Assembly: GCA_946886075.1 (NCBI GenBank)
Contig: CAMPHR010000019.1
Span: 1 to 52,940 of the forward strand
Source: an uncultured Novosphingobium sp.
GTDB lineage: Bacteria > Pseudomonadota > Alphaproteobacteria > Sphingomonadales > Sphingomonadaceae
Reading direction: 5' to 3'
DNA: 52,940 bases
Shown in pieces: positions 12,435 to 28,762 of this stretch. The notes beneath the pieces are model-generated. The model did not search any database. It saw nothing but the letters and a program-made list of their open reading frames with translations, and had not been told where the DNA came from. Position 1 is the stretch's first letter, and each line of letters begins with the position of its first letter. A program made the position numbers and the translations under genes.

Positions 12435-12452
12435 ACCCAGCAAAGGCTGGGT
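12435..12452 (-). terminator. Hairpin, probable native terminator of tRNA-Glu
   Basis: A perfect 7-bp stem ACCCAGC / GCTGGGT around AAAG. Read on the minus strand it is followed by ATTTTC. It abuts the 17-bp copy of the tRNA-Glu 3' end at 12452-12468. In the ancestral, empty chromosome this would sit directly behind tRNA-Glu, so it looks like that gene's terminator, now 16 kb away. Confidence 0.6.
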
Positions 12453-12468
12453 GGTGACCCCTACGGGA
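12452..12468. repeat. attL, left 17-bp direct repeat of the genomic island
   Basis: TGGTGACCCCTACGGGA is identical to 28647-28663, the 3' end (CCA, acceptor and part of the T arm) of tRNA-Glu. The flanking bases differ on both sides. On the island side the repeat also forms a small inverted repeat, ACCCCT-N5-AGGGGT (12457-12473), absent at attR. A tRNA-derived repeat opposite an integrase-proximal tRNA is the standard sign of tyrosine-recombinase integration. Confidence 0.88.
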
Positions 12469-12799
12469 GGGGTAAATCGTAATATAACATGCGCAATTTC
12501 AATATGTTAGCTGCGTGTAATTATGATGCTTTGTGCCACTTTCGTGTCACGCCACATCGTCCTTCTGGCATGCTGTCGTCCGACCGCCAAGGACTATTAT
12601 TTCTGTCAGAACTAACCGGGCCCAATAACGTCTGCAATGGCGCTGGGGCGTGCGCCGGAAAGGCGGCTTCCAGTTCATCCACCGCGAGGAGAGATTGCTG
12701 TCGAGCTTCTTCGGCGGCCGACTGTAGGCGTCCTCGCCTGATGCGCTCGTCTATGGCGGCCTAACTCAACTGCTTCCTACCGAAGCAGGGGTGGGCAGT
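12469..12799. other. Island left margin without a supported gene
   Basis: 331 bp between attL and the DUF3037 gene, visibly richer in A/T near attL. The minus strand keeps an open frame without an ATG from about 12763 to a TAA at 12521. Its first part (ERIRRGRLQSAAEEARQQ, then LLAVDELEAAFPA) has the helical look of a type I restriction S-subunit C-terminus. The rest resembles nothing. It is more likely a decayed gene end than a working gene. Confidence 0.4.
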
Positions 12800-13657
12800 T
12801 CACTGTGCCGCTTGGTGATGCCGGAAATCGTCCTCGATCACGTTGATCAATTCGTCGATATCACCCTCTTCATAGACCGCGGGTGAGCTTGGAGCTGCTC
12901 TCAAGATTTCCAGCGCCGTTTCATACGCGGGCATAAGGCCCGGATCCGATGGCTTGCCAGCGATGAAATAGGCCTTGAACTGGTCACTTGCGCCGATGTT
13001 CACGGAAGAAAGGTGGCCCATCCACTTACGGGCCTTGTTTTTTATGGTCTCCGCCTCCGCAAGATCGAATGAGAGCGGCTCATATGCGTGAATTTGTCCA
13101 TTTTTCCACGAATGCGTGAATTCAATGGCATCCACCGTGCCACGGATAACCTTCGGCTCGAATTCGATCGCAATGCGCCGTTCGACAAGGGCTTGGTGAA
13201 CCGGCCGCCATACGTCGTCATCGGTGCGGCGAGTATGGCTATGGCGGTCATAGCGCGACAGCATGCGATCCGCGATCCGATGGAATTCTTTATTTGCGTC
13301 CTTTGCGATCCCGGTGCCGATCTCAGACCATTGCAGCGAACTGCCATCATGAGGCAACATGCGCACAGCGATAGCGCGCGCGTCACGGCTCGAAAAAAGG
13401 CGTTCTGCCTCCACTTCTTTAGTGATCGGCTTCGACGCCCGCCGAAGCGAATCGATTGCAGCTGCGAAGGCTGGACGATCAATGTCAGGGAAGAGATGGC
13501 GTAGCCGTTGAATTCGGTCCTTGAACTCAGTCAGGAGAATTGGAGCGTCTCCTTGGTGGCTGGGCGCGTAGAAGACGAGTCCGACATTCACGAACTCACC
13601 TGTCACTATGTCATGGACATAGCGCAAAACGCTGTAGCTATAAGGCCGGCGGCTCAT
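12800..13657 (-). CDS. DUF3037 domain protein, partner of HipA-like kinase
   Basis: 285 residues. The N-terminus (YSYSVLRYVHDIVTGEFVNV, GLVFYAP) is the hallmark of DUF3037, whose members usually sit next to a HipA-like kinase gene, as here. No catalytic motif is recognised; the C-terminus is acidic (EEGDIDELINVIEDDF). Its ATG overlaps the TGA of the HipA-like gene (ATGA at 13654-13657), so translation should be coupled. It may be the regulator, antitoxin or substrate of the kinase; that is inference. Base composition is less GC-rich than the surrounding chromosome, fitting foreign origin. Confidence 0.8.
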   Translation of the reverse strand: MSRRPYSYSVLRYVHDIVTGEFVNVGLVFYAPSHQGDAPILLTEFKDRIQRLRHLFPDIDRPAFAAAIDSLRRASKPITKEVEAERLFSSRDARAIAVRMLPHDGSSLQWSEIGTGIAKDANKEFHRIADRMLSRYDRHSHTRRTDDDVWRPVHQALVERRIAIEFEPKVIRGTVDAIEFTHSWKNGQIHAYEPLSFDLAEAETIKNKARKWMGHLSSVNIGASDQFKAYFIAGKPSDPGLMPAYETALEILRAAPSSPAVYEEGDIDELINVIEDDFRHHQAAQ

Positions 13658-14448
13658 TTCAAGATCCGATCCAACTCAATCATGCACCCGTCGATGTTAT
13701 CACGAACTAGACGGATTCTTCCTAAAATATCGGTTATAAACGCGTCATCCCGCCAACCGTTCGGGACGGCTGCGCCATAACCATCAATTTCCTCGTCAAG
13801 CAACCCCGCCCATTTTGCCCGGATAGCGCCTTGATTGATTTGCTGGCCCAGCAACTCACGGCGGAAGATGTGTTTACCAGGCTCCGTAAATGACCCCATT
13901 CCACCGAGCGCCCAAGGCTTCGGGCCCAATAGGCCACGGGGGAACGCCAGTTCGTGATCGAAGATGCGGAGCTTGTCGCCGCTGACAAGGCAGTTGGGGT
14001 TCCCGTCCCTGCGGTCGACGTTCTCGATAAAGCCGTCAAAGGCGAGTATCTCGGCAGCCGTCTGCACCATAGGGGGCGTCAACCGGTTAGTCACGGCCCA
14101 TGCCGGCCACTGGGGCCCGACCAATTTCGAGCCAAACACCAGATTGTCGAAATCCGACACGCGTGCTCGGATTGCAGGTGGGAGGCAGTCACGCCAGTCG
14201 GAAGGGATGGACACCAAGAATGGCTCTGGAATCGGCAAGTCCAGTGCTGCCGCGAGGCATGCAGCGATTACTTCTACCGCAAGAGAGTTGGTGCCCATAT
14301 CGCACGCAGAAGCAAATTTGAGGACGACATCAATCACGTCGCCATCGTCTGCTTCTGCGGCCACTACGATGGGTTGCGTCCGTCCGCTACCGACTTCTCG
14401 GATATATTGGACGACCTCTAAAGTTCTTAACAAGCCTGCTATCTCCAC
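13654..14448 (-). CDS. HipA-like protein kinase
   Basis: 264 residues, the short HipA-like family found with DUF3037. Kinase features are K44 in VVLKFA (ATP lysine position), the catalytic-loop equivalent FIENVDRRDGNPN at about 141-152 and the metal-binding Asp in LRIFDHELAF (D164). It lacks the N-terminal subdomain of classical HipA, and no HipB-type helix-turn-helix gene is nearby. The start is non-ATG: GTG at 14446-14448, with a TTG five codons later that has GGAG at good spacing and would fit the family N-terminus (RTLEVVQYI) better. It is first in the pair and transcribed the same way as the relaxase gene 100 bp upstream. The role (toxin, defence or regulation) is not known. Confidence 0.78.
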   Translation of the reverse strand: MEIAGLLRTLEVVQYIREVGSGRTQPIVVAAEADDGDVIDVVLKFASACDMGTNSLAVEVIAACLAAALDLPIPEPFLVSIPSDWRDCLPPAIRARVSDFDNLVFGSKLVGPQWPAWAVTNRLTPPMVQTAAEILAFDGFIENVDRRDGNPNCLVSGDKLRIFDHELAFPRGLLGPKPWALGGMGSFTEPGKHIFRRELLGQQINQGAIRAKWAGLLDEEIDGYGAAVPNGWRDDAFITDILGRIRLVRDNIDGCMIELDRILK

Positions 14449-14547
14449 CCTGCCAAGGCAATGGAGGGAAAGACTTATCTGCTGTCAAGAATGAAGAAGG
14501 GCAGGTTTGTGAACAAAATAGGATCGAATGGTGATCCCGACTGCCTT

Positions 14548-16668
14548 TTACCGCGATCGTTGCTGAGCCTGGATGACGGCCAGACGCCGCAGACGCTCGG
14601 CAACCTCATTGCGTGCCTCATCCGTTCCGTCAAGAATCCGCTGCTGATGTTGGGGAAGGGACTTGCGCGTCCGTTCGACCAGATCGTCGAGGGCGTCCAC
14701 ATCGTCATTGAGCTTCATAATGCGGCTATTGGCGTCGGCCTGATCGCGGAACGTGCTGTCAATAAGCTTGAGCATCGCTGCGGCCCATTCGGGCGGGCGA
14801 TTGGCGATGGTCCGAATGACGGCATCGGGTGCGGGATGCAGGCGACCGTCAGGCTTTCGCGCCATATGGAAATAGCCATCGTCCCGGAAACTGCCGATCA
14901 GCATCCTGGTGGCGCTTCCTGTCACCACGGTCATCCAGTCAAGCTGCGCCTGTTCGCGTTGCGCGGCTGCTGCCGCACTCGCCTGGGTTGCCGATGCCTG
15001 TTGCTTAAGCGCAGCCTCCCGCGCCGCCAGCGCGTCGGCTCGCGCAGTGATCGCCTTCTCTCGCTCTCGTAACTCATGCCTGGCCATTGTCGTCGCGGCG
15101 TCCTGCGCAAGACGCTCTTGGCGCAATTTCTGTTCCGACGCCGCCTGCCGGTGTTCGCGCTCCGACGCGATCGCCTCCCGCTGTGCCAGTTCCGCTTCCT
15201 GCGCCGCCACGCGCCCTTCACGACGCAGAAGATCGGCAGTCAGGCGGCGGATGCGCTGAAGCGCGAGGGCAACCTGGCGACCGATACGAATAGCACCGGC
15301 AGTCCATGGCGCCTTGTAAACCGCATGTTCCTGCTGGGTCATCGCGCTTGTCTTCATTACGAACGCCTGTTCGTGCGGACGAAGGTTGAGGCCGCTACTG
15401 TCATCGGCACTGCGCGCAAGTAGCTCGATCTCCGCATTCTGCCGTTTCTGCCGGGCTTCGAGCGCAGCATGATCCCGCGCCACTAATTCGCGCTCGCGGG
15501 CGATGGCATCGCGTTCGGAGACCGCTGCCTGTCGTTCCTGCTCGGCCCGTTCGGCTGCATCTTGAGCGTCGCGGCGCGCCCGCTGAAATAGCACTTGATC
15601 GCTTTTGGCTCGTGCGAGTGCTTCGGCCAGCTTTTGGCGGTCCTCCTCCAACTGCTGACGCTGTCGGTCCGCAATCATGCGTGCTTGTGCCAGCCTCTCC
15701 CGTTCACGCTGGGCTTCGCGAGCCGAAGCCTCCGCCTCCTCATGTCGAGAAGCGGCCATCCGCAACTCCTGTGCCACATCCTGTGCCAGTCGTTCCGCTT
15801 CGGCCTGGACTGCGGCCGACGCCAGCCGATCCGTGGCTGCTTGCTGCCGATCGTGCAGGGCGGCCTGAGCAAGCGCCTCCGCTTCAGCCCTCAGACGCTT
15901 GACAGCCGCTCGTCCTTCCGCCGGTGTCATGGATCGCCGGGGTCTGGCTGATCCGTCCGCATTATGACCGCGTGAAAGATCGAGCGCGGAGATGGTCAAC
16001 TCATCGCCAATCTCGATTTCGATATCGTCACGCTGCACCTCACCCCGCTCCAAGCCCAGATGCTTCACGGCGGCATGATAGGCGTCTTGCTCTTCCGAAA
16101 GCCGCTGGTTCTTGCCCCCCAGAATGTCGTGGTAAGACAATGTCCATTTCATCGGCGCTTCTGCCTTGCGCCGCTCATAGTCGGCGAGTTTGACCGGATC
16201 GGTCGGCTTCTTACCTCTGGGTAGCGCCCGTTTCTCGACCACTGGTATGGCGACGAAGTGGATATGCCATACCTCCTCATCAAGATGCAGCTTGGCGGTG
16301 AGCAGCCCCTTGCCGAACTTGTGGGCGGCCCATTCGACATTCGTCCTGAGCCATTCCTGCTTTTCCGCCTCGCTGGCCTTGTCGAACCATCCCTTGCTGG
16401 CGGTGGTGACCGTCTCAACTGCGATGACCTTGTCGTTGGTCGATTGCATATCGATCCCAAGCTCCCGGAGACGATCGCGGGCGGACGCGACGAAATCGTC
16501 GCTGCCTTCCTCCAGCAGTTCCAAGGGAGGCGGCGCATCGTCGCGGATATTCTCGCCAGCAATGGTGCGGATATTATGCTGGCAGACGCGATCGAGCGCA
16601 GCGAATGATTTGACTTTGGCATAGCGCATGATGGCGTAGAGTTTGCGTGGGGTGGTGGTGTCGGGCAT
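14548..16668 (-). CDS. MOBV-type relaxase (Mob/Pre family)
   Basis: 706 residues. The N-terminal 200 residues form a Mob/Pre relaxase: KLYAIMRYAKVKS, then the HNIR...GENI motif (H31-R34-N40) and the metal-binding triad in HLDEEVWHIHFVAIPV (H128, H135, H137), a variant of the family's HxDExxPHxH. From about 255 to 620 the protein is a long Ala/Glu/Arg/Gln-rich coiled coil (AEALAQAALHDRQQ..., REAQRERERLAQAR). The C-terminus returns to a mixed sequence. It should nick oriT and lead the strand into a recipient using another element's secretion machinery, since none is encoded here. The candidate oriT lies just upstream. Confidence 0.88.
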   Translation of the reverse strand: MPDTTTPRKLYAIMRYAKVKSFAALDRVCQHNIRTIAGENIRDDAPPPLELLEEGSDDFVASARDRLRELGIDMQSTNDKVIAVETVTTASKGWFDKASEAEKQEWLRTNVEWAAHKFGKGLLTAKLHLDEEVWHIHFVAIPVVEKRALPRGKKPTDPVKLADYERRKAEAPMKWTLSYHDILGGKNQRLSEEQDAYHAAVKHLGLERGEVQRDDIEIEIGDELTISALDLSRGHNADGSARPRRSMTPAEGRAAVKRLRAEAEALAQAALHDRQQAATDRLASAAVQAEAERLAQDVAQELRMAASRHEEAEASAREAQRERERLAQARMIADRQRQQLEEDRQKLAEALARAKSDQVLFQRARRDAQDAAERAEQERQAAVSERDAIARERELVARDHAALEARQKRQNAEIELLARSADDSSGLNLRPHEQAFVMKTSAMTQQEHAVYKAPWTAGAIRIGRQVALALQRIRRLTADLLRREGRVAAQEAELAQREAIASEREHRQAASEQKLRQERLAQDAATTMARHELREREKAITARADALAAREAALKQQASATQASAAAAAQREQAQLDWMTVVTGSATRMLIGSFRDDGYFHMARKPDGRLHPAPDAVIRTIANRPPEWAAAMLKLIDSTFRDQADANSRIMKLNDDVDALDDLVERTRKSLPQHQQRILDGTDEARNEVAERLRRLAVIQAQQRSR

Positions 16669-16728
16669 GGTCAGTCTCAGCCAGGCGGGCGGTAAAGGCC
16701 CGTTTTGTTAAATGGGTGGACTCACTCC

Positions 16729-16751
16729 GGGTATTTACTGCGCAAATACCC
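16729..16751. other. Candidate oriT (inverted repeat upstream of relaxase gene)
   Basis: A perfect inverted repeat GGGTATTT-ACTGCGC-AAATACCC, 60 bp upstream of the relaxase start. It is followed by a second short palindrome GGGGCGAGCCCC (16762-16773) and C-rich sequence. MOBV relaxases usually act on inverted repeats directly upstream of their own gene. The nick site cannot be named from sequence alone. Confidence 0.5.
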
Positions 16752-16898
16752 CCGTGAGCCAAGGGGCGAGCCCCCTGGACCCCCATGCAGCCCTTCACCT
16801 CGTTCCGGTCTGCGCGCTTCTCCGCAGAGAAGCGCAAGGGGCAAGGAGCGGAAGGAAAAGGTGCGTGGCATGATTGCGACGCACCCTTCCACCAAGCA

Positions 16899-17603
16899 TC
16901 ACGACGGGAGAGCGGCGGGAAGCTCCGGACGATCGTCGCTGAACAGCTGCGGCTCCGTCGTGTCGGCCGCAGGCGTCTCAGCCTGCTGCTTCTCGCCGCT
17001 CACCCCGTCCATCTCGCTACAAGCGATGGCGCCTTCGTCGCTGTTCGCGCCCGGTGCTCCGACCGCACCCGCCGTTGACTCCATGGCAGGCAAGGGGTCG
17101 GCCTTGATCCGGTCGATCTGCGCAAAGGCGCGTTCAAGCGCCTCCACCTTGCCCATCAGTCGTGCCTCGCTCAGGCGAAGCTGTTCGACCTGATCGCGCA
17201 GGGCTTCAGCCTGGGCGACAACGGCTTCCCGTTCAGCCTCAATCTCTTCGTTGACGGCGAGCGCCTCGTCGAGCTCGGCACGGACGCGCTCCGCTTCGAT
17301 AGCGGCCGCGGCGCCGACCCTGCGCCCTTCTTCGCGGACGCGATCGAACACCTCATGGATCAGCGCGGTTACGGCAGCGGTTATCGGTGCCATGCTGTCG
17401 GTCGTAATCTCCACCCCCACCGCAGGAGGGCGGAACTGGCTGCGCCACCGATTGAGATGGGTGATGATGGTGGTCAGGCTGCCCGTGCCGGTTTCTTCCC
17501 GGATGGCGCCTGCGGAGATGTCGTCGGGCTTGAAACCCTGACTGACCAGATTGTCGGCGATGACCGACACCACATCAAACTGAATGCCGCGTTTCCTGGA
17601 CAC
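16899..17603 (-). CDS. KfrA-like DNA-binding protein
   Basis: 234 residues. The N-terminal 65 residues (FDVVSVIADNLVSQGFKPDD, TGTGSLTTIITHLNRWR) are the KfrA N-terminal DNA-binding domain of plasmid replication regions. Residues 70-165 are an Ala/Glu/Arg coiled coil (AAAIEAERVRAELDEALAVNEEIEAE), as in KfrA, and the last 65 are acidic and disordered-looking. In plasmids KfrA is an autorepressor that helps maintenance. Here no rep or par genes accompany it. The start is GTG 17603 with GGGAG about seven bases before. The 24-bp palindrome just upstream is its likely operator. Confidence 0.82.
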   Translation of the reverse strand: MSRKRGIQFDVVSVIADNLVSQGFKPDDISAGAIREETGTGSLTTIITHLNRWRSQFRPPAVGVEITTDSMAPITAAVTALIHEVFDRVREEGRRVGAAAAIEAERVRAELDEALAVNEEIEAEREAVVAQAEALRDQVEQLRLSEARLMGKVEALERAFAQIDRIKADPLPAMESTAGAVGAPGANSDEGAIACSEMDGVSGEKQQAETPAADTTEPQLFSDDRPELPAALPS

Positions 17604-17995
17604 TGTATAACTCCCGTATCCATACGCACATATTCATATGTACGTACAGTTGATGAACGGGGTTCGGACAATAGAGTGGGACCGAACCCACCTTTGCGAA
17701 GGCAAAGACGGTAGGTTATTGGATCGTTGATCATTTATGCCAACACGATTTTCGAGGAAGTCGCTCGCTGTTGTTATTATGCAACGATTTCCTCATTTTT
17801 CAGAGCGGCTAGGATGATTTCCTGATTTCGGCAAGCAACATTCGTCATGCCGCAAATTGTTTTGAAATCGCTCGGAGCCAGCCGACCACGTCGGGGCTCA
17901 CGAAAAGGCGCTTCGACAGCGAAGCCTGTTGATCGGGAAGATTGGGAGGAAAAGCCTCGCAGTTGCTCGGTCGGTTCAAACAGGAGTTATCGACC
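17604..17995. other. Divergent promoter region between kfrA-like and exonuclease genes
   Basis: 392 bp holding the palindrome described separately, then an A/T-rich stretch (17,700-17,850) that presumably contains promoters for the exonuclease operon. I could not choose a convincing -35/-10 pair. A 50-codon frame at 17847-17999 overlapping the next ATG, and a minus-strand frame ending at 17845, are not supported by composition or start signals. Confidence 0.5.
17623..17646. promoter_or_regulatory. 24-bp palindrome, probable KfrA-like autoregulatory operator
   Basis: TACGCACATAT-TC-ATATGTACGTA: two 11-bp arms with one mismatch, starting 20 bp upstream of the GTG of the kfrA-like gene. KfrA proteins are known to bind inverted repeats overlapping their own promoter, so position and symmetry fit an operator. 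Confidence 0.6.
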
Positions 17996-18880
17996 ATGAC
18001 GCACATCAACCGCACCGCCTCGTCAGAGGCGGCCCCTTCGTCATACGCGAGCGATCCGAATATACGGATACTGCACCGCGTCGCCACGCTTGAGGATTTT
18101 CCGCTGATGGAGCAGGCGCATCCGTCCGTGCGACGTGTCATCATCGTGGACACCGAAACCACCGGCACCGATCCGCTGGTGGACGAAATCATAGATATCG
18201 CCTTCGTGACCATCGATGTCGATGCGCGCGGCGAAATCATCGATATCGTCAGCAGGGGGCAGGGGCTGCGCGATCCCGGCGTGCCAATCCCGGCGCAGAT
18301 CAGTCGGTTGACCGGCCTGACGGACGCGGATGTAGAGGGCAAGGTCATCGACCTGGATCGGCTTGAGCAGGCCTTGGTCCGTGCGGATGTGCGGATCGCC
18401 CACAACGCCAGCTTCGACATCGCCTTTCTGGAGAACCTCATGCCGGGCCTGGCAGGCGCGGCATGGGCCTGCTCGGCAAGCGACTTCGACTGGCTGGCTG
18501 AAGGCTTTGACGGGCGGAAGCTGGGCCATCTGCTGATGCAGATCGGCTGGTTCAACGGAGCCCACCGCGCAATGGCCGATGTGATCAGCTTGCTCCACCT
18601 GCTCGCCCACCGTCTCGATGACGGAAATACGGTCATCGGCAAGTTGCTGGACCGCGCAGAGCGGCCGTCGATCCGCTTCGAAGCGAACGGCGCGCCGTTC
18701 AGCCGGCGCAGCCTTCTCAAAGGGCGCGGCTACCATTGGGATCCGCGTCAGCGGGTCTGGTGGATCGAGATAGCGCAGGACGAATGCGCCGAGGAGGAGC
18801 GGTGGTTCCGCACCGAAATAGCGCCGCATGGTCCTGCGCCCCGGATGCTGCCGATCACATGGAACCAGCGGCATCGCTGA
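17996..18880 (+). CDS. DEDDh 3'-5' exonuclease (DnaQ-like)
   Basis: 294 residues. Complete DEDDh active site: D52 and E54 in VIIVDTETTGTDP, the motif-II region IAHNASFDIAFLE, and motif III HRAMADVISLL with His and Asp. The fold is that of the DNA polymerase III epsilon subunit, but it is a free-standing enzyme with an N-terminal extension (about 45 residues) and a C-terminal domain of about 75 residues (FEANGAPFSRRSLLKGRGYHW..QRVWWIEI). That C-terminal domain may bind DNA. ATG 17996 has CAGGAG ten bases upstream. It opens an operon with the next two genes. Its role in the island (DNA processing, transfer or defence) is unknown. Confidence 0.85.
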   Translation: MTHINRTASSEAAPSSYASDPNIRILHRVATLEDFPLMEQAHPSVRRVIIVDTETTGTDPLVDEIIDIAFVTIDVDARGEIIDIVSRGQGLRDPGVPIPAQISRLTGLTDADVEGKVIDLDRLEQALVRADVRIAHNASFDIAFLENLMPGLAGAAWACSASDFDWLAEGFDGRKLGHLLMQIGWFNGAHRAMADVISLLHLLAHRLDDGNTVIGKLLDRAERPSIRFEANGAPFSRRSLLKGRGYHWDPRQRVWWIEIAQDECAEEERWFRTEIAPHGPAPRMLPITWNQRHR

Positions 18881-18998
18881 AGGGAAGACGGCGCGCCTGC
18901 GGGCGCGCTCACAGAATTGGAAATCAGAAGAAATGAGCACCGTGAAAGAACGGAAAAATGCTCCGGCCAACAGGCCGTCACAAGAAGGAAGTAGACAA

Positions 18999-19535
18999 AT
19001 GGAAATAACCTTGCGCCACCAAAACTTCATGCTCGCGGTCCGTCGCGAAATGGGCTGGCCGCTCTTCAAGCCCGCGAATGACTGCATCGGTTTTTCGTCC
19101 GGGCAGGTGATGGATTTTGCCGTCGGCAACGAGATCGCCCGCATCGCCCAACTCCTGCACAAGGATGTGATCTACACCGGCTGGGCCAGCGTCAAGGCGA
19201 GCGAACCGACCGGGTTCACCATCGCCTATCGCGAGTTGCTGACCACGGACATCGTGGACCGCCTGGTGCCCTATGCCGCCAACGACCAGGCGCCGCTCAT
19301 CCTCGTCAGCACGCGCGCGGACGAGTTTTTCGCCATCGACCGGCGTGGTTCGCTGGTCCGGGTGCCGGGCAAGCCCAAAAACATCGGAACGGGCCGCAAG
19401 CTCGCCATGAAGCGGATCAAGGCGACCGCAGCAGAGATGGGCGAGCAACTGCTGGAGAACAACCGTTTCGTGCCGCCGGGCGCGGACTGGGTCGAACCGG
19501 AGGCGGACTCTGGGATCATCGTCCGGTTCGGCTGA
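18999..19535 (+). CDS. Protein of unknown function between two exonuclease genes
   Basis: 178 residues from ATG 18999, which has AAGAAGGAAG at 18982-18991. An in-frame ATG at 18933 with a weaker site would add 22 charged residues. I do not recognise a family. It seems soluble with mixed alpha/beta character: FMLAVRREMGWPLFKPANDC, AVGNEIARIAQLLHKDVIY, RELLTTDIVDRLVPYAANDQ, APLILVSTRADEFFAIDRRG. There is no signal peptide or membrane segment. It lies 118 bp after one exonuclease and 84 bp before the next, all on the plus strand, so it is probably part of the same transcript. Confidence 0.7.
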   Translation: MEITLRHQNFMLAVRREMGWPLFKPANDCIGFSSGQVMDFAVGNEIARIAQLLHKDVIYTGWASVKASEPTGFTIAYRELLTTDIVDRLVPYAANDQAPLILVSTRADEFFAIDRRGSLVRVPGKPKNIGTGRKLAMKRIKATAAEMGEQLLENNRFVPPGADWVEPEADSGIIVRFG

Positions 19536-19619
19536 ACATCATGGCGGACTGCCACGGCAGTGCGCCTTCCAACATTTTCCCCTTCATACAGGCCGGGCAC
19601 GCCCCGGCGGAGAGTAGCT

Positions 19620-20507: not shown

Positions 20508-20514
20508 AGGATAT

Positions 20515-20555: not shown

Positions 20556-20793
20556 AAAAATTACCTCTTACAGAACATTGCCCGTATTTTTGCGGTTAAT
20601 ATTTCCAAACGGCTGATGTGCGCGGGAATACCAGTGCTTTGGTTCGATAGTTAGAAGTGTGGTATTCCTAGTATCATCGCCAGCATTAGGCTGATCTTTC
20701 CGCGTCTTTCATCGTTCGCTGCAGAAAAATTTTCACTTGCTCTGGCGAGGTAATGGTCTTGACCGTAGGGTCGGGCTCGCACGGGGTGGACAC

Positions 20794-23253
20794 ATGCTCA
20801 ACAAACGATCCTTAAGTGAACGCGACATTTGCACGAAGTTTATCACGCCCGCGGTCAAACAGGCCGGTTGGGATGAAATGACGCAGATTAGGGAAGAAGT
20901 CAGCTTTACGAAAGGCCGCATCATTGTGCGCGGCAAGATGGTCAGCCGAGGTCAAGGCAAACGCGCTGACTATGTGCTTTACTACAAGCCGAATATCCCG
21001 CTGGCGCTGATTGAGGCCAAGGACAACGCCCAGCCCATAGGTGCGGGGATGCAGCAAGCGCTGGAATACGCAAAAACCCTCGATATCCCCTTCGTATTTG
21101 CGTCGAACGGCGATGGCTTTGTATTCCATGACCGCACCGGCGCAAGCGATGCACGCGAAATCACGCTAGCCCTTGATGCCTTTCCAGCGCCGGGCGAGCT
21201 ATGGCAGCGATATGCCGCGTGGAAGGGCCTAACGCCCAAAGGCGAGAAGATAGTCCTCGAAGATTATTATGATGACGGCAGCGGCAAGCAGCCGCGCTAT
21301 TATCAGGTCAACGCCGTCAACGCGGCCATGGAAGCCATTGCCACCGGCCAGAACCGGATTTTGCTTGTGATGGCAACTGGCACGGGCAAAACCTACACGG
21401 CGTTTCAGATCATCTGGCGCTTGTGGAAGGGCGGGCATAAGAAGCGGATCCTGTTTCTCGCCGACCGCAATGTGTTGGTCGATCAGACCATGGTCAACGA
21501 CTTCCGGCCCTTCGGCCCGGCTATGGCCAAGCTGTCGGCCAACGCCAAAACTATCGAACGCGATGACGGCACCAGCATCGACCTGCCAATCGCGATGGAT
21601 AAAAAACGTCGCGTCGATACCGCCTACGAGATTTACCTTGGGCTGTATCAAGCGATCACCGGGCCGGAGGAACGGCAAAAGCTGTTCAAGGAGTTTTCGC
21701 CCAGCTTCTTCGACCTGATCGTTATCGACGAGTGCCACCGGGGCAGTGCAGCGGAGGACAGTGCATGGCGCGAAATCCTTGAGCATTTCTCTGAGGCCAC
21801 GCAGATCGGCCTGACCGCGACGCCCAAGGAAACCCGCTACGCATCCAACATCCACTATTTCGGCGAGCCCGTTTATAGCTACACTTTGAAACAGGGCATC
21901 CGGGATGGCTTCCTTGCGCCCTATAAAGTCATCAAGGTCCACTTGGACCGCGACATTCAGGGCTATCGGCCAGAGAAGGGCCAGCTCGATCGCGACGGCA
22001 ACGAGGTCGAGGACCGGATCTACAACACCCGCGATTTCGACCGCACACTGGTGCTGGATGACCGGACCAAGCTCGTCGCCCGCAAGGTCACGGAATTCCT
22101 GAAAGAAAGCGGGGACCGCTACCAGAAGACCATCGTCTTCTGCGTCGATCAGGAACACGCGGCGCGTATGCGGCAGGCCCTCATCAACGAAAATGCCGAC
22201 CTAGTGGCGGAGAACTCGCGCTACGTCATGCGGATCACGGGCAACGACCCCGAAGGTCAGGCGCAGCTTGGCAACTTCATTGACCCCGAAAGCCGCTACC
22301 CGGTGCTGGTCACAACGTCACGGCTGTTGTCCACCGGCGTCGATGCGCAGACCTGTCGGCTGATCGTCCTCGACCGCGACGTTGGATCGATGACCGAGTT
22401 CAAGCAAATCGTCGGGCGCGGCACCCGCGTTCACGAAGACACCCGCAAGTTTTTCTTCACGCTGATGGATTTCCGGGGGGCTACGAACCACTTCGCCGAC
22501 CCGGATTTCGATGGCGAACCCGTGCAAATTTATGAGCCGGGCGAAGACGATCCTGTCACGCCGCTCGATGAGGACAATACTATCATCGACCCGGGCGACA
22601 ACCAGAGCGACCAACCCGGCGAGGGCGAAACCATCATCGACGGCGGCGACACGCCGGACATCACCGTCACCGATGACGGCGGCAGGCGTGGCAAGGTCTA
22701 TGTCGATGGCGTGGCCGTCATCATTGTGGCGGAGCGCGTGGAATATCTGGACGAGAGCGGCAAGCTCGTCACCGAAAGCCTGAGAGACTTCACGAAAAAA
22801 GCCCTGCGCAAGCATTTCGCCAGCTTGGATGATTTCCTTACCCGGTGGAATGGTGCCGAACGCAAACAGGCGCTGGTTGATGAATTATCATCGGAAGGCC
22901 TCGCGCTCGATGTTATCGCGGATGAACTCGGCAAAGACCTCGATCCGTTCGACCTTATTTGCCACGTTGCCTTTGATCGCAAGCCGCTGACCCGCCGTGA
23001 GCGAGCGGAGAATGTGCAGAAACGCGATGTTTTCGCCAAATATGGTGATCAGGCCCGCACCGTGCTGCGCGCCCTGCTCGACAAGTATGCCGACGAAGGG
23101 GTGCTCAATCTTGACGATGCCAACGTGCTGCGTATCCCGCCGCTGAACACGCTGGGCACCCCGGTCCAACTCATCAAGGCTTTCGGCGGCAAGGCCGGCT
23201 TTGAAGATGCCGTCCACGCGCTGCAAAACGAACTTTATCAGGAAGTTGCTTAA
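20794..23253 (+). CDS. hsdR: Type I restriction endonuclease subunit R
   Basis: 820 residues, starting at ATG 20794 (MLNKRSLSERDICTKF; GGGGTGG just upstream). The N-terminal nuclease has D59-x14-E74-A-K76 (KRADYVLYY...LALIEAKDN). The translocase has Walker A ATGTGKT at 194-200 and DECH at 312-315 (VIDECHRG), then helicase motifs GLTATP and QIVGRGTRVHED. An acidic linker (DDPVTPLDEDNTIIDPGDNQ) precedes the C-terminal domain that binds the M2S core. Length and wording fit the shorter EcoEI-like HsdR class. All key residues are intact. First of three tightly spaced genes. Confidence 0.96.
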   Translation: MLNKRSLSERDICTKFITPAVKQAGWDEMTQIREEVSFTKGRIIVRGKMVSRGQGKRADYVLYYKPNIPLALIEAKDNAQPIGAGMQQALEYAKTLDIPFVFASNGDGFVFHDRTGASDAREITLALDAFPAPGELWQRYAAWKGLTPKGEKIVLEDYYDDGSGKQPRYYQVNAVNAAMEAIATGQNRILLVMATGTGKTYTAFQIIWRLWKGGHKKRILFLADRNVLVDQTMVNDFRPFGPAMAKLSANAKTIERDDGTSIDLPIAMDKKRRVDTAYEIYLGLYQAITGPEERQKLFKEFSPSFFDLIVIDECHRGSAAEDSAWREILEHFSEATQIGLTATPKETRYASNIHYFGEPVYSYTLKQGIRDGFLAPYKVIKVHLDRDIQGYRPEKGQLDRDGNEVEDRIYNTRDFDRTLVLDDRTKLVARKVTEFLKESGDRYQKTIVFCVDQEHAARMRQALINENADLVAENSRYVMRITGNDPEGQAQLGNFIDPESRYPVLVTTSRLLSTGVDAQTCRLIVLDRDVGSMTEFKQIVGRGTRVHEDTRKFFFTLMDFRGATNHFADPDFDGEPVQIYEPGEDDPVTPLDEDNTIIDPGDNQSDQPGEGETIIDGGDTPDITVTDDGGRRGKVYVDGVAVIIVAERVEYLDESGKLVTESLRDFTKKALRKHFASLDDFLTRWNGAERKQALVDELSSEGLALDVIADELGKDLDPFDLICHVAFDRKPLTRRERAENVQKRDVFAKYGDQARTVLRALLDKYADEGVLNLDDANVLRIPPLNTLGTPVQLIKAFGGKAGFEDAVHALQNELYQEVA

Positions 23254-23256
23254 TCA

Positions 23257-24714
23257 ATGTCGGTTCGCACTCTCGTCAGATCCATTCAAGACATCATGCG
23301 CAAGGACAGCGGCGTCGATGGTGACGCCCAGCGCATTAGCCAGCTTTGCTGGCTTTTCTTCCTGAAAATCATCGACGATCAGGATCAGGAATTGGAATTG
23401 ATGCGTGACGGCTATCAGGCGCCGGTTCCAGAGCAATTCCAGTGGCGCAATTGGGCCGCCGACCCCGAAGGGCTGACCGGCGAGGCGCTGCTCGCCTTCG
23501 TCAACGAGGAACTGTTTCCGGCGATGAAGGGCTTGAAGCCCACCGGCCAGCCCGGCGACCGCCGCCGCGTGGTGCGCGACGTGTTCGAGGATGCCTACAA
23601 CTACATGAAATCCGGCCAGTTGCTGCGACAGGTGATCAACAAGATCAACGACATCGACTTCAACAATCTGTCTGAGCGCCAGCACTTTGGCGACGTTTAC
23701 GAGCGGCTTCTCAACGACCTGCAATCCGCCGGCAACGCGGGCGAATACTACACCCCGCGCGCCGTCACCGCTTTTATGGTGGATCGCATTGACCCAAAGC
23801 CCGGCGAGATCATCTTCGACCCATCCTGCGGCACGGGCGGCTTCCTCACCTGCGCGATGAAGCACATGCGTGACCGATACGTGAAGCGACCTGAGGACGA
23901 GGCGCTGATGCAGGCATCCCTGCGCGCGGTCGAAAAGAAGCCGCTGCCGCACATGCTTTGCGTCACCAACATGTTGCTTCACGGCGTCGAAGACCCCAGC
24001 TTTGTGCGCCACGACAACACACTAGCTCGGCCATACATCTCGTGGGAGCAGAAGGACCGCGTCGATGTGATCCTCACCAACCCGCCCTTCGGCGGCAAGG
24101 AAGAGGACGGCATTGAAAGCAACTTCCCCCAGCATTTCCGCACGCGCGAGACGGCAGACCTGTTCCTGGCCCTCTTCATCCGCCTGCTACGCAATGGCGG
24201 CGTGGCGGCCATCGTCTTGCCGGATGGAAGCCTGTTCGGTGAAGGGGTGAAGACCCGGCTGAAAGAGGCACTGCTCGAAGAGTGCAACCTCCACACCGTC
24301 GTTCGCCTGCCCAACTCCGTGTTTAAGCCCTACGCCTCCATCGGCACCAACCTGCTGTTCTTCGAGAAGGGCGAACCGACCAAGGAAATCTGGTTCTACG
24401 AGCATCGTGTGCCAGAGGGCCAAAAGGCCTATTCGATGACCAAGCCGATCCGACAGGATCATTTCGCCTCTTGCGTGGAATGGTGGGGCGGCGCGCAACG
24501 CAAGGGCCGCGAGGAAGGCCCGCAGGCATGGAAGATCACCGCCGACGAGGTGAAAGCGCGCGGCTACAACCTCGACTTCAAGAACCCGCATAGCGAGGGA
24601 GCCGATCACGGTGATCCGGCAGACTTCTTGAAAAAGCTGGATCAGGCCGAAGCCAAAGCATCCGATCTGCGCGCGCAACTGCAAGCTGTTCTGGCCGAGG
24701 CGCTGGCCCGATGA
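23257..24714 (+). CDS. hsdM: Type I DNA methyltransferase subunit M (N6-adenine)
   Basis: 485 residues. The N-terminal helical HsdM domain (ISQLCWLFFLKIID) is followed by the SAM-binding motif DPSCGTGGF at 188-196 and the catalytic NPPF at 275-278. A C-terminal helix (PADFLKKLDQAEAKASDLRAQL) probably contacts HsdS. It starts three bases after the hsdR stop and overlaps hsdS by 4 bp (ATGA), so the subunits are made together. With HsdS it methylates the recognition sequence; with HsdR it forms the restriction complex. Confidence 0.96.
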   Translation: MSVRTLVRSIQDIMRKDSGVDGDAQRISQLCWLFFLKIIDDQDQELELMRDGYQAPVPEQFQWRNWAADPEGLTGEALLAFVNEELFPAMKGLKPTGQPGDRRRVVRDVFEDAYNYMKSGQLLRQVINKINDIDFNNLSERQHFGDVYERLLNDLQSAGNAGEYYTPRAVTAFMVDRIDPKPGEIIFDPSCGTGGFLTCAMKHMRDRYVKRPEDEALMQASLRAVEKKPLPHMLCVTNMLLHGVEDPSFVRHDNTLARPYISWEQKDRVDVILTNPPFGGKEEDGIESNFPQHFRTRETADLFLALFIRLLRNGGVAAIVLPDGSLFGEGVKTRLKEALLEECNLHTVVRLPNSVFKPYASIGTNLLFFEKGEPTKEIWFYEHRVPEGQKAYSMTKPIRQDHFASCVEWWGGAQRKGREEGPQAWKITADEVKARGYNLDFKNPHSEGADHGDPADFLKKLDQAEAKASDLRAQLQAVLAEALAR

Positions 24715-26360
24715 ACGCCGATTTCGTGCGTGATGCTGTGTCGCGTTTTGGTGACGATCCAGAAGGTATTGGCCGTTTTCGGAAGATGGTCATCGGCTTG
24801 GCCATTGCCGGAAAGCTGGCAGGAGAAGGTCAGCGGCGGTCGCCTGCGGAAATGCTCGATCAGATAGAGAGCGAAAAGATCAGGCTCCTGCGGTTCAGCG
24901 AAATTTCGAAGCCAAAACGTTTCCCGCCCGTTATTGACGAGCAGCTTCCAGAAGGCTTTGCCGACGCATCAGCTTTCGCACCACTCGGAGCCATCGCTCG
25001 CATCGAGAAGGGATTGACTGGTATCCAAAGCGCTAAAAGCGGCAGCTTTCCGCTCGTGGTCACAGCGGCTGAGCGAGGCTCCTGTGACCATTTCGATTTT
25101 GAAGGCGCGGCGACGATTGTGCCTCTGGTGTCATCGACGGGGCATGGCAATGCCAGCATCAATCGCCTGCATTATCAGGAAGGCCGGTTTGCGCTGGGCA
25201 CTATCTTGGCAGCAATTTTCCCTTATGCTCCAGACCTGATTTCGGCGCGGTTCATATTTGAATACCTTTCCACCTTTAAGGACGAACTGCTGGTTTCCCG
25301 CATGACAGGGACGGCGAACGTCACGCTCAGCGTCGGCAAGATCGCAGAAGTGCCCATTCCGCTAATTTGTCCGACCGTTCAGCGCAAGGCAGATGCGTTG
25401 ATGACCCTGTGCGATCAACTTGAGGCGGCGCGAGCAGAGCGCGAGGCGGCGCGCGACAAGTTAACTCTGTCCACGTTGGCCAAACTCAACACCCCCGATC
25501 CCGAAACCTTCGGCCAAGACGCCCGCTTCGCGCTGGCCAACCTCGCCCCACTCACCACCCGCCCCGATCAGATCAAACAACTGCGGCAAACCATCCTCAA
25601 CCTCGCCGTGTGCGGTAAGCTGGTGGAGCAGGATACGTCGGATGAACCCTCCACTTTTATAATCGAAGAAATTGCGGGGCTTATTGTGAATGGGGGACGG
25701 CGCGGAAAACGCAAAGCCTGTGATGGTGAACCAATATCTACGGAATGTCCCGCAGGGTGGCACTGGACGAAGCTTTCTTCACTTGCGATGTTTGAAAACG
25801 GAGATCGGAGTTCAAATTATCCGAGCGGTTCGGACATCAGGTCCGAAGGCGTTCCGTTCATCAGCACCAAAGCCATAAGCAATCATGCGGTTTCGCTCGA
25901 CGCAGTTGACTTTGTGTCGCCAGAAAAGTTCGCTTCCTTGCGAAGTGGAAAGGCGCAGCACTTGGATATCCTGATCACTTTGAGAGGATCGGTCGGGAAG
26001 TTTGGCCTGTTTAGCGAAACGGACCGATACAAAACGGGCTTCATCAACGCCCAGTTGCTGATTTTGCGATGCTTGAAAGTGGACCTGGTCCCGTTCTTGC
26101 TGACCTACATGCGTTCTGATGGTTTTGCCGAGCAGATCAGAAAATTATCAAGTGGCAGCGCCACGCCGCAACTTTCAGCAGGGCAACTCGCATCGGTAGA
26201 CCTCCCGCTGCCCCCACTCGCCGAACAGCACCGCATCGTGGCCAAAGTCGATGGATTGATGGCCCTGTGTGACCAACTCGAAGCCAGCCTCATCACAGGC
26301 GAACAAACTCGCTCCTGCCTGCTGGAAGCCGTCCTGCACAATGCCCTGGAGCCTGCCTGA
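24711..26360 (+). CDS. hsdS: Type I specificity subunit S
   Basis: 549 residues with two target-recognition domains. Two similar spacer regions mark the repeat: TVQRKADALMTLCDQLEAAR (about 222-241) and 'LAEQHRIVAKVDGLMALCDQLEAS' near the C-terminus. Both are followed by helical coils. TRD1 is about 75-220 and TRD2 about 340-500. An N-terminal extension (FRKMVIGLAIAGKLAGEG) repeats the linker form IKQLRQTILNLAVCGKLVEQ in the middle, showing an internal duplication. The recognition sequence cannot be deduced. No inverted-repeat fragments of hsdS suggesting phase variation are seen nearby. Confidence 0.94.
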   Translation: MNADFVRDAVSRFGDDPEGIGRFRKMVIGLAIAGKLAGEGQRRSPAEMLDQIESEKIRLLRFSEISKPKRFPPVIDEQLPEGFADASAFAPLGAIARIEKGLTGIQSAKSGSFPLVVTAAERGSCDHFDFEGAATIVPLVSSTGHGNASINRLHYQEGRFALGTILAAIFPYAPDLISARFIFEYLSTFKDELLVSRMTGTANVTLSVGKIAEVPIPLICPTVQRKADALMTLCDQLEAARAEREAARDKLTLSTLAKLNTPDPETFGQDARFALANLAPLTTRPDQIKQLRQTILNLAVCGKLVEQDTSDEPSTFIIEEIAGLIVNGGRRGKRKACDGEPISTECPAGWHWTKLSSLAMFENGDRSSNYPSGSDIRSEGVPFISTKAISNHAVSLDAVDFVSPEKFASLRSGKAQHLDILITLRGSVGKFGLFSETDRYKTGFINAQLLILRCLKVDLVPFLLTYMRSDGFAEQIRKLSSGSATPQLSAGQLASVDLPLPPLAEQHRIVAKVDGLMALCDQLEASLITGEQTRSCLLEAVLHNALEPA

Positions 26361-26362
26361 CG

Positions 26363-26600
26363 ATGCCAGTCCGCCGCCGTGGTAACAAACTTGAACGCTG
26401 GGAAATCGCCCTGATCAAGGCATGGTGGCGGACGGTTGTTGGCCTAACGATCAGGACATTCTCGCCTATTTCACGCGACCGACACGCTCGATCAACCACC
26501 GCGCTATCGGAGAAATCCGCAGCAATGCCAAGCACGCGGCCATCAAGGCGGCGACGGCCGACGAGCTTGAAGCCTTCATCGCGTCATGGCCGGAGGTATA
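26363..26600 (+). pseudogene. DUF3644 gene remnant, frameshifted and truncated
   Basis: Directly after hsdS the frame at 26363 reads MPVRRRGNKLERWEIALIKA and then goes out of frame. The frame beginning at ATG 26422 continues the same protein: VADGCWPNDQDILAYFTRPT and ELEAFIASWPEV. From memory these join to the start of DUF3644 proteins, often encoded beside type I restriction genes. One missing A ('GCA ATG' reduced to 'GCATG') explains the shift. After WPEV (about 26597) similarity stops, and the end of the integrase gene follows, so most of the expected protein is lost. Confidence 0.7.
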
Positions 26601-26637
26601 CTCGAATAAGACTAGGGACGATCAAGCAGCTGCCTCA

Positions 26638-28560
26638 TCATGCATGCTGCTCAAGAAGGCGTGCGACACGGTAGCGCGCGCATGCGACGACGGAATCCCA
26701 ATCAACACCAGCGTATTCCAGCTTGTCGATATCTTCCTTCAGATCCTCAATACTCAAGCCTTGCCCATATTTTCGTCCGACGCGACGGCCGTCCGAATGG
26801 CCGTGCCACTGGTCAGCGCTCTGTTCGGACACGCGCTTGCGCCGCGTTTCTCGCTTGCTGGTGTGTCGTGTGCTATAAAAGGCCTTGTCGCTTGCATCTA
26901 CCCCAAGTTCGTCCAGCACAGCGTTGATCTGCCTCGACAGATATTTGTATCGATCCCCATATCTGTCAGCTTCCAGATCCTCAAACAGCCATGTGGCCTT
27001 GCGACGCTGCTGCAAGGCGACGAAATCCATGAAGCCGCCTTCTTCGATGATCCAGTGCAGCGGCACGTCCCGGATCGAACTACTGGTCTTCTGAGTAATC
27101 GGGGCAGGGTCCGCATTGCCGCTTGACCTACCGGGGCGACTATTGCGGAAGCGCACGGTCGGGACACTATCTTCATAAAGAACATCATGCGGACGCAGCT
27201 TGCAATGCTCACCAGGGCGGGCACCCTGAAATGGCGCCATGAACATGATCCAGAACATGGTGTCGCTGCACGCATCTGGGTCGGTTAGATAGCGAGAGCC
27301 GTAGATGATCTGCATGTCCGCGTCAGACAGGCGATCGCGCTCATCGCCATTATATTGCGATCCAGCGACCTCGATTTTGGTCGCCACATTCTTCGCGATC
27401 CATTCCCTCTCAACCGTCGCTATCTCCAGAAGGGATCGGATTGCCGTCACATGTTTCTTCACGGACGCTGGCGCTAACGTCTGCAGGCCTTTTGTTTCCG
27501 CAATCGCCACCTGGTCCCGCACCGGGAGCGTCGCGATCTTCTTGGCGGGCCGTGTCGGCATACCCTTAATCAGGTCGCGGAAATCGATCACCATAGTGCG
27601 GGTGATGCGATCAAGCGGAATGTCGCCATGAACCTCAATGAAGCGATCCACGGCGAGTTTCCATTCGTCATAGGTCTTGTGCACGTCGCCGGGTCTCAAG
27701 CCGCGATTGATACGCCATTGCGCCAGGCAATCCGAAAGATGTCGCACGTCAGACGGCGACGCTGATGGCTCCGGAGCCGTGACAGCCGCTTCTTTGTTGG
27801 TCATTGGCGCGACAAGCTGGTCCATATTGTCCGGCCAGAACTGGAAGCGACGCTCTGCCAGATATCGCAGGACGCATTCGGACAGCGCTTCGAACAATGG
27901 CGTCCGCATCTTCACCGTCGCGTCGGCAGCGCTGGCGACCAGCAGAACTTCATACTCAGCCGCCTGCCAACTGCGCCGCGCCAGCAAGGCGCGTGCAATG
28001 TCGCGGTTTGCATAGCTCTGGTGACGCGGGTTTCCATGCAAAGCGTCCGACCGGGCCACAAACTCTTGCTGATCCTCCTCGTCTACAAACCCCAAAGGCA
28101 GCGTGGGAACATCATCCACCGCCGGCCCCGAGATTTCACCGATCAGTTCAAGTTCGGCCTTGTCGGCATGATCGCGCCCCCAAGTCAGGCGTGTCCGATA
28201 GGCTAGAAATTTAAGCATCCCATGCGCCACATTATCTTCGGCGGCCGTGATGTCAGTGACACCATCGTCGTTCTCGCGCAGGTTGCTCTTGGCCAATACC
28301 TGAAGGCCGCGCTGGCAAATGGCCTGCGCCTCGCTGCTGACCGATGCCAATTCTTCCGATTCAAGTCGTGCCAGAAGCGCCCGGACTTCACTCAGCTTGT
28401 CGGCGTGTCTGAGGCGGGCAACGTCGCGGTCCGTCGTTTCCAAAGAATATTTGAATTCGCGCTTGCCAACACGATCACGAAATCGGGCGGGAACCGCCAT
28501 GCGGAACCAGAAATTTTTCGATCGGGGATGCTGCCAGATACCAGCCACGCGCAACCTCAT
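26638..28560 (-). CDS. Tyrosine site-specific recombinase (island integrase)
   Basis: About 640 residues, large for the family. The N-terminus (MRLRVAGIWQHPRSKNFWFRM, then KREFKYSLETTDRDVA) is the DUF6538-like module of proteobacterial island integrases, followed by a long insert. The core-binding domain is at about 270-400. Catalytic residues: Arg in FQGARPGEHCKL, Lys in KTSSSIRDVPLH, Arg in FYSTRHTS, His in QWHGHSD, and the nucleophile Tyr in GRKYGQG. The usual His of the HxxR box is Tyr here. I start at ATG 28560; the frame extends to 28596. It lies 86 bp from the tRNA-Glu 3' end, transcribed in the same direction, as expected for the element's integrase. Confidence 0.92.
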   Translation of the reverse strand: MRLRVAGIWQHPRSKNFWFRMAVPARFRDRVGKREFKYSLETTDRDVARLRHADKLSEVRALLARLESEELASVSSEAQAICQRGLQVLAKSNLRENDDGVTDITAAEDNVAHGMLKFLAYRTRLTWGRDHADKAELELIGEISGPAVDDVPTLPLGFVDEEDQQEFVARSDALHGNPRHQSYANRDIARALLARRSWQAAEYEVLLVASAADATVKMRTPLFEALSECVLRYLAERRFQFWPDNMDQLVAPMTNKEAAVTAPEPSASPSDVRHLSDCLAQWRINRGLRPGDVHKTYDEWKLAVDRFIEVHGDIPLDRITRTMVIDFRDLIKGMPTRPAKKIATLPVRDQVAIAETKGLQTLAPASVKKHVTAIRSLLEIATVEREWIAKNVATKIEVAGSQYNGDERDRLSDADMQIIYGSRYLTDPDACSDTMFWIMFMAPFQGARPGEHCKLRPHDVLYEDSVPTVRFRNSRPGRSSGNADPAPITQKTSSSIRDVPLHWIIEEGGFMDFVALQQRRKATWLFEDLEADRYGDRYKYLSRQINAVLDELGVDASDKAFYSTRHTSKRETRRKRVSEQSADQWHGHSDGRRVGRKYGQGLSIEDLKEDIDKLEYAGVDWDSVVACARYRVARLLEQHA

Positions 28561-28582
28561 TTGTACCACCCCTTTGTACCAC
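28560..28582. repeat. Two 10-bp direct repeats at the integrase start
   Basis: TTTGTACCAC occurs at 28560-28569 and again at 28573-28582, a 13-bp period just upstream of the integrase ATG and between it and attR. Such pairs are typical of arm-type integrase or excisionase binding sites, or of an operator. Which of these applies cannot be told. Confidence 0.5.
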
Positions 28583-28646
28583 TGGGCAGTTAACAAATCG
28601 AGAAAATGCGCAAAAACCTCGCAAAACCATGCTTCTTGAAGAAGGA

Positions 28647-28663
28647 TGGTGACCCCTACGGGA
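28647..28663. repeat. attR, right 17-bp direct repeat within tRNA-Glu
   Basis: Identical to 12452-12468. It covers the 3' end of tRNA-Glu including the encoded CCA, so the tRNA stays intact after integration. A small palindrome CTTCTT-G-AAGAAG (28632-28644) adjoins it on the island side. Confidence 0.88.
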
Positions 28664-28721: not shown

Positions 28722-28762
28722 ACATGCAACAGCTGCTCTGGCAGCGCTGCGAAGCGAGGGCG

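What the first reader, a model, noticed from the sequence alone, without database searches (positions are those of the whole stretch)
12452..28663. 16.2-kb integrative mobilizable element in tRNA-Glu with exact boundaries
A perfect 17-bp repeat (TGGTGACCCCTACGGGA) sits at 12452 and at the 3' end of tRNA-Glu (28647), with a tyrosine recombinase just inside the right end. Between the repeats are a MOBV relaxase, a KfrA-like regulator, two exonucleases, a type I R-M system and a HipA-like/DUF3037 pair, but no secretion or replication genes. This defines a complete element that moves by using helpers and carries defence-type cargo.
Basis: partly seen in the sequence, partly recalled or inferred. 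Interest (0 to 1): 0.75.

Follow-up and report, generated by a model that had tools for sequence, protein, structure and literature searches.

The report
Defence-carrying mobilizable element in tRNA-Glu
A 16.2-kb piece of DNA that carries anti-phage genes has inserted itself exactly into a tRNA gene of a Sphingobium-like bacterium; a close relative shows the site still empty, and the piece has the enzymes and a likely transfer start site to hitch a ride to other cells on someone else's transfer machine.

Summary
The 17-bp repeat is exact at 12452-12468 and 28647-28663; the right copy is the 3' end of an intact tRNA-Glu. The integrase is a DUF6538 tyrosine recombinase whose best Sphingobium relatives lie beside the same 17-mer. 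The relaxase matches Mob_Pre/MobM with active-site residues kept.

New here: an oriT candidate. The kfrA-mob gap is 212/217 identical to a sister element, against 85/120 at four-fold sites of mob; a hairpin in it ends in GTGAG/T, like known MOBV nick sites, and a 35%-identical relaxase has the same frame. Also new: a DnaQ-unknown-PolB-exonuclease cassette recurring in sphingomonad loci, one with a MobA/MobL relaxase.

HipA_2+DUF3037 is the known defence system HipAD/PDC-M66. No secretion or replication gene was recognised. Excision and transfer are inferred, not shown. Verdict: a complete-looking canonical IME, a new member of a known kind.

The parts
12452..12468 (+). distal att repeat (attL), 17 bp; outside it a CCCAGC...GCTGGG hairpin, shared with the empty site, that looks like the tRNA's own terminator
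   Evidence: attB/attL/attR comparison (hairpin read by eye)
28647..28663 (+). proximal att repeat (attR) = 3' end of tRNA-Glu
28647..28721 (-). intact tRNA-Glu (ttc), the integration target
26638..28560 (-). integrase: DUF6538 tyrosine recombinase, about 640 aa (longest ORF starts at 28596); conserved R460, K503, Y574xxR577, H600, Y610 in the 652-aa numbering
14548..16668 (-). MOBV-type relaxase, 706 aa, with H31/R34 and HLDEExxHIH conserved and a long, coiled-coil-like C-terminal part
16669..16885 (-). oriT candidate region between kfrA and mob, 212/217 identical to the sister element in G078
16721..16758 (-). oriT core hairpin CTCACGGGG...CCCGGAGTGAG; predicted nick 5'-GTGAG/T-3' between 16721 and 16720
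16899..17603 (-). KfrA_N family DNA-binding protein, 234 aa (likely regulator)
17942..18880 (+). DnaQ-like DEDDh 3'-5' exonuclease, first gene of the cassette
18999..19535 (+). 178-aa protein of no known family (U178), middle gene of the cassette; 201 homologues at E<=0.001
   Evidence: (longer frame)
19560..20507 (+). PolB-type 3'-5' exonuclease (DNA_pol_B_exo2), third gene of the cassette
20737..23253 (+). HsdR, EcoAI/FtnUII-family type I restriction subunit
23257..24714 (+). HsdM, type I methyltransferase
24711..26360 (+). HsdS, type I specificity subunit
13654..14448 (-). HipA_2 kinase, PADLOC PDC-M66A (HipAD/DS-6 toxin-like kinase)
12800..13657 (-). DUF3037 protein, PADLOC PDC-M66B (partner of the kinase)

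Best explanation
A canonical integrative and mobilizable element (IME, 'iMOB' type) of a Sphingobium-like host, 16,195 bp as a predicted circle. Its DUF6538 tyrosine recombinase recombines attL (12452-12468) with attR (28647-28663), which would excise a circle and leave the tRNA-Glu 3' end intact [boundaries shown; excision inferred]. [quoted passage not shown] KfrA probably controls the mob operon [inferred]. The DnaQ-U178-PolB-exonuclease cassette probably processes or protects DNA around transfer or establishment [weakly inferred]. Type I R-M plus HipAD serve as phage defence and may also stabilise the element [inferred from validated relatives].
For: Repeat exact, no third copy. Natural empty site in G011: window 9343-12468 and 28644-30155 align to one continuous locus and overlap in the repeat. 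Left of att, attL matches attB 31/40 and attR 10/40; right of it, attR matches 58/58 and attL 10/58. Same gene order TamA-RecJ-tRNA-Glu-DUF2200-...-dnaN-EAL in G011. Of the 25 integrase-relative loci fetched from Sphingobium genomes, 7 carry the 17-mer: the six best (L084-L089) and rank 10 (L093); ARAGORN on ten of the 25 gave 6 tRNA-Glu, 3 tRNA-Gly and 1 none (L088, which has the 17-mer). Integrase: PHROG integrase family E=8.8e-22, catalytic residues. Relaxase: Mob_Pre above cut-off, profile match to MobM 4lvi E=1.3e-7, H31 and R34 invariant and HxDE...HxH at least 90% conserved in 18 sequences. oriT: 212/217 against 85/120 four-fold sites, Fisher p=6.6e-13; fold z=-4.2; frame CTCACGGGG-N-CCCGGAGTGAG in 1 of 308 family genomes, G223 itself, just before its 35%-identical relaxase. 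Known MOBV nick sites are GTGTG/TT and GTGcG/TT (PMC5090054, passages). Element GC 58.7%, flanks 64.0%.
Against: No excised circle, attP junction or transfer was seen. The MobV match is below NCBIfam's equivalog cut-off (92.3 against 100 bits). The integrase itself hits no Pfam catalytic-domain model and has Tyr where box II usually has His. No excisionase was recognised. No helper could be looked for. The hairpin frame rests on three sequences, two of them identical there. In the sister element G078, kfrA and the C-terminal part of mob each match in two reading frames, so that copy may be damaged. Three further family genomes with weaker relaxase matches show no oriT-like match.
Confidence: 0.88

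Rival explanations
1. A stranded genomic island: it inserted by the same integrase once but can no longer excise or transfer.
For: No excisionase recognised, no direct proof of mobility; relaxase relatives are rare in sequenced isolates (1 of 94 Sphingobium genomes; 4 of 397 family genomes), and the sister copy in G078 may be damaged.
Against: The main frames are open, both att copies are still exact, catalytic residues of both enzymes are kept and the oriT candidate is strongly constrained.
Confidence: 0.1
2. A defective phage satellite or prophage remnant that uses tRNA-Glu.
For: A tyrosine integrase in a tRNA and defence cargo are also typical of satellites (recalled). In PHROGs, HipA_2, DUF3037, HsdS and KfrA match families of unknown function, and the DnaQ-like protein matches phage polymerase/exonuclease families.
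Against: No structural, packaging or lysis family among the 10 proteins scanned with PHROGs; no relaxase or integrase relative in the viral contigs; a MOBV relaxase with an oriT candidate points to conjugation.
Confidence: 0.02
3. A composite: two adjacent insertions, or an accretion in which relaxase and cargo do not move as one unit.
For: tRNA-Glu sites are reused: beside RecJ, G059, G016 and G034 have other contents between two 17-mers 19.3, 10.4 and 14.1 kb apart, and GC differs between cargo and mob genes.
Against: Only two att copies, no third at up to 2 mismatches. The sister element in G078 has mob, kfrA and an integrase between one pair of 17-bp tRNA-Gln repeats, so relaxase plus integrase as a unit recurs.
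Confidence: 0.05

Closest known systems
Canonical IMEs with a MOBV relaxase (IMESag-rpsI, Tn4451, Tn5520, ATE-1; PMC5704250, section 9 and passages read)
   Same: Own recombinase, own MOBV relaxase with oriT next to it, no coupling or mating-pore gene
   Different: Host is an alphaproteobacterium; relaxase has a long C-terminal coiled-coil-like part; DUF6538 integrase; exonuclease cassette. The 2017 review says none of the IMEs then described in Proteobacteria was canonical
pPDL2 of Sphingobium fuliginis (PMC3516476, abstract and passages read)
   Same: Sphingobium, called an integrative mobilizable element, tRNA 3' end as attB
   Different: A replicating 37-kb plasmid, seryl-tRNA target, RepB with only weak similarity to a MOBF relaxase, degradation cargo
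Sister element in G078 (contig length equals that given for Sphingobium sp. JS3065 protein P0002), C2:201328-221284
   Same: mob 80% (first 240 aa 95%), kfrA, near-identical oriT region, an integrase with Phage_integrase and a weak DUF6538 match, 17-bp tRNA repeats
   Different: tRNA-Gln target, other cargo (ParE-like toxin, MASE1/HATPase kinase plus LuxR-type regulator, 1894-aa protein of no family), only a 30%-identical PolB exonuclease; kfrA and the mob C-terminus match in two frames each
HipAD / DS-6 / PDC-M66 defence (PMC12548924, PMC13092281, passages read)
   Same: HipA-like kinase next to a DUF3037 protein; PADLOC E=4.6e-61 and 1.2e-76 over nearly full length
   Different: Function not tested here

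Membership tests
Integrative and mobilizable element (canonical/iMOB) | Chromosomal element with exact ends made by its own recombinase | tested here: met
   Empty site and att comparison; integrase inside. That this recombinase made the ends is inferred
Integrative and mobilizable element (canonical/iMOB) | Own relaxase | tested here: met
   NCBIfam MobV below cut-off
Integrative and mobilizable element (canonical/iMOB) | Own oriT | tested here: inconclusive
   A candidate by conservation and structure only
Integrative and mobilizable element (canonical/iMOB) | No coupling protein or mating-pair-formation genes | tested here: met
   None among the element's proteins scanned; small ORFs in the gaps were listed but, except 26363-26674, not scanned
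Integrative and mobilizable element (canonical/iMOB) | Excises and is transferred by a helper | not testable with these tools
   No reads or cultures; own genome not held
MOBV relaxase | Mob_Pre/MobV domain with HUH-type motif and catalytic His | tested here: met
   Pfam Mob_Pre above cut-off; MobM profile match; H31 and HLDEExxHIH. NCBIfam MobV equivalog cut-off not reached: 92.3 against 100
MOBV oriT | Inverted repeats next to a GTGNG/T nick upstream of mob | tested here: inconclusive
   Hairpin and GTGAG/T present in 3 of 3 sequences compared; a second GTGNGT lies at 16884; no cleavage assay
Tyrosine recombinase | R-K-HxxR-H-Y catalytic residues | tested here: met
   R460, K503, R577 invariant; H600, Y610 at least 90% conserved in 24 sequences; box II first residue is Tyr574, not His; PHROG integrase; weak XerC-like match
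HipAD / PDC-M66 | HipA-like kinase plus DUF3037 partner | tested here: met
   PDC-M66A E=4.6e-61, PDC-M66B E=1.2e-76
Type I restriction-modification (EcoAI-like) | HsdR, HsdM and HsdS together | tested here: met
   HsdR above the EcoAI cut-off

The most novel reading that the evidence does not exclude
The three genes DnaQ-like exonuclease, U178 and PolB-type exonuclease form a conserved DNA-processing cassette that travels among sphingomonad mobilizable elements whatever their relaxase (MOBV here, MobA/MobL beside it in G088) and integrase, and serves transfer or establishment (for example trimming or protecting the incoming strand, or blunting recipient defence): a new kind of IME helper module.
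Probability: 0.35. Interest if true: 0.6.

Novelty: new member of a known kind. Interest (0 to 1): 0.42.

Why it matters
It gives a canonical MOBV mobilizable island in an alphaproteobacterium with ends fixed by a natural empty site, a precise and cheaply testable oriT and nick prediction, and examples that tRNA-Glu in Sphingobium takes different islands with defence or other cargo. It also points to an uncharacterised exonuclease cassette that recurs near such islands.
Full report
The repeat. TGGTGACCCCTACGGGA lies exactly at 12452-12468 and 28647-28663, with no third copy at up to two mismatches and none expected by chance. The right copy is the 3' end of an intact tRNA-Glu(ttc) on the minus strand, downstream of recJ. 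The copies are 16,195 bp apart, the predicted size of the excised circle.

The empty site. The window is Sphingobium-like: RecJ is 86-91% identical to L001, L002, L003 and L047, all named Sphingobium. Of 94 genus genomes searched with window 10842-12460, only G011 matched nearly the whole stretch into the repeat (query 2-1619, 85%); G073 and G059 matched only the last 57-80 bases into it. Window 9343-12468 and 28644-30155 align to one uninterrupted G011 locus and overlap in the repeat. G011 has the same gene order on both sides, with dnaN 100% and RecJ 98.6% identical. Left of the repeat attL resembles attB (31/40) and attR does not (10/40); right of it attR equals attB (58/58) and attL does not (10/58). 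The ends are therefore set by comparison, not only by a repeat. Outside the left repeat both attL and attB carry a CCCAGC...GCTGGG hairpin that looks like the tRNA's own terminator (read by eye).

The site is reused. Beside RecJ and its tRNA-Glu, G059, G016 and G034 hold DNA between two 17-mers 19,251, 10,434 and 14,114 bp apart in which no gene of the window's element was matched (in G034 RecJ is 70% identical and the tRNA reads ctc). At tRNA-Glu(ctc), G003, G030 and G084 have pairs 16.0, 16.3 and 17.5 kb apart; G030 and G084 hold a 29-30% relative of the integrase. The list was cut off after G078, so these are examples and not a count. The G059 stretch holds an RND pump, a LysR regulator and hydrolases; no recombinase was recognised in the 10 of its ORFs scanned.

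Integrase. The gene has an N-terminal DUF6538 domain, matches the PHROG integrase family at E=8.8e-22 and keeps R460, K503, R577, H600 and Y610 in a 24-sequence alignment; the box II first residue is Tyr574 and not His, and the Pfam catalytic-domain model does not hit it. Its 81% relative in G005 (the genome of L036, Sphingobium nicotianae) also starts beside a tRNA-Glu. Of 25 Sphingobium loci fetched with it, the six best and the tenth carry the 17-mer and the other 18 do not. ARAGORN on ten of the 25 gave tRNA-Glu in six, tRNA-Gly in three (none of them with the 17-mer) and none in L088, which has the 17-mer. So this clade of the integrase goes with tRNA-Glu.

Relaxase and oriT. The 706-aa protein matches Mob_Pre above the Pfam cut-off, NCBIfam MobV below its equivalog cut-off (92.3 against 100 bits) and, as a profile, the MobM structure 4lvi. 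H31 and R34 are invariant and HLDEExxHIH is at least 90% conserved in 18 sequences; MobM cleaves through a histidine (PMC5863519, abstract and passages). The gap between kfrA and mob is 212/217 identical between the window and G078, while four-fold sites in the first 250 mob codons are 85/120 identical (Fisher p=6.6e-13). The strand folds better than all 200 shuffles (z=-4.2). At 16721-16758 is a hairpin, CTCACGGGG to CCCGGAGTGAG, 52 bases before mob. G223, whose relaxase is 35% identical, has the same frame with a different, still pairing, inner stem 54 or 66 bases before mob, depending on the start codon. In 308 genomes of the family that frame occurs once, in G223 itself; G078 was not seen in that sample's list, and in the 186 loci held it occurs in G078 and G223 stretches only. 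The 3' arm ends GTGAG followed by T; known MOBV nick sites read GTGTG/TT and GTGcG/TT (PMC5090054, passages). I predict a nick at 16721/16720 on the minus strand. A second GTGNGT lies at 16884, so this is a prediction and not a proof.

Sister element. G078:C2 carries mob (80% overall, first 240 aa 95%), kfrA, the near-identical oriT region, a 30%-identical PolB exonuclease and an integrase with PF00589 and a weak DUF6538 match, between two 17-bp copies of a tRNA-Gln 3' end 19,940 bp apart. In that copy kfrA and the C-terminal part of mob each match in two reading frames, so it may be damaged. The mobilisation module has thus been joined to different integrases. The relaxase is rare in isolates: 1 of 94 genus genomes and 4 of 397 family genomes at E<=1e-6; the protein search listed 20 proteins at E<=1e-8, the window's own among them.

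Cassette. DnaQ-like, U178 and PolB-exonuclease genes lie in that order in the window and in G040, G092 (two loci) and G088. Over all, 10 U178-like loci were found in 8 of 94 genomes, with DnaQ near 4 and PolB exonuclease near 7. In G088 a ParA-like protein (below Pfam's cut-off) and a MobA/MobL relaxase lie 1.5-5 kb away, with distant type I R-M homologues on the other side. One G092 locus has a 17-mer without a tRNA two kilobases beyond the cassette, as at the far end of a tRNA-Glu island, and DNA methylase, helicase, SMC-type and nSTAND3 neighbours. In G223 the two exonucleases lie near the relaxase, without a U178 match. U178 has 201 homologues at E<=0.001, and those of the 120 listed that bear an organism name are Sphingomonas, Sphingobium and Qipengyuania. 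It has no Pfam (scanned as the longer frame), NCBIfam or PHROG family and no confident fold match. A role in transfer or establishment is a guess from company.

Cargo. HipA_2 plus DUF3037 are PADLOC PDC-M66A/B; both also match PHROG families of unknown function, so phages carry relatives. That pair is validated phage defence under the names DS-6/HipAD; deletion of the kinase removed defence and deletion of the DUF3037 gene was toxic in the retron study's construct (PMC12548924 and PMC13092281, passages). HsdR, HsdM and HsdS form a type I system, HsdR of the EcoAI family.

Known or new. It fits the canonical IME / iMOB definition (PMC5704250 section 9; PMC11389934 passages), with transfer untested. 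In 2017 no IME described in Proteobacteria was canonical; the 2024 review already counts an iMOB in an E. coli genome, so the class is no longer new there. For Sphingobium one search found no paper, and of 195 papers in another, 15 listed, pPDL2 was the Sphingobium precedent. I file it as a new member of a known kind, with the oriT prediction and the cassette as the parts most worth following.

Noticed in passing
17601-17650: The stretch just upstream of kfrA is 98% identical to G078 while kfrA itself is 38-90% in 50-base blocks: a likely KfrA operator or promoter.
   Followed up: no
L144/L156 (G059:C1:2749564-2768831): The same RecJ-side tRNA-Glu holds a 19.25-kb segment with the same 17-bp ends but an RND pump, LysR regulator and hydrolases; no recombinase recognised among the 10 ORFs scanned.
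   Followed up: partly
L154 (G084:C46:61593-79099): tRNA-Glu(ctc) island with a related DUF6538 integrase, an LmuB-like SMC/AAA protein, a weakly SIR2-like protein and a 1707-aa protein of no Pfam family.
   Followed up: partly
L161 (G078) 8666-14350 on -: 1894-aa protein with no Pfam or PADLOC match inside the tRNA-Gln sister element.
   Followed up: no
L161 15581-17308 and L174 8902-10578: A MASE1/HATPase kinase gene occurs both in the G078 element and near the exonuclease cassette in G040, so it may be shared cargo.
   Followed up: no
G073:C9, C16, C19, C36, C45, C78: Six copies of the 17-mer, two of them at position 101 of their contigs; the C19 copy has no tRNA beside it. Several tRNA-Glu islands that broke the assembly are possible.
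   Followed up: no
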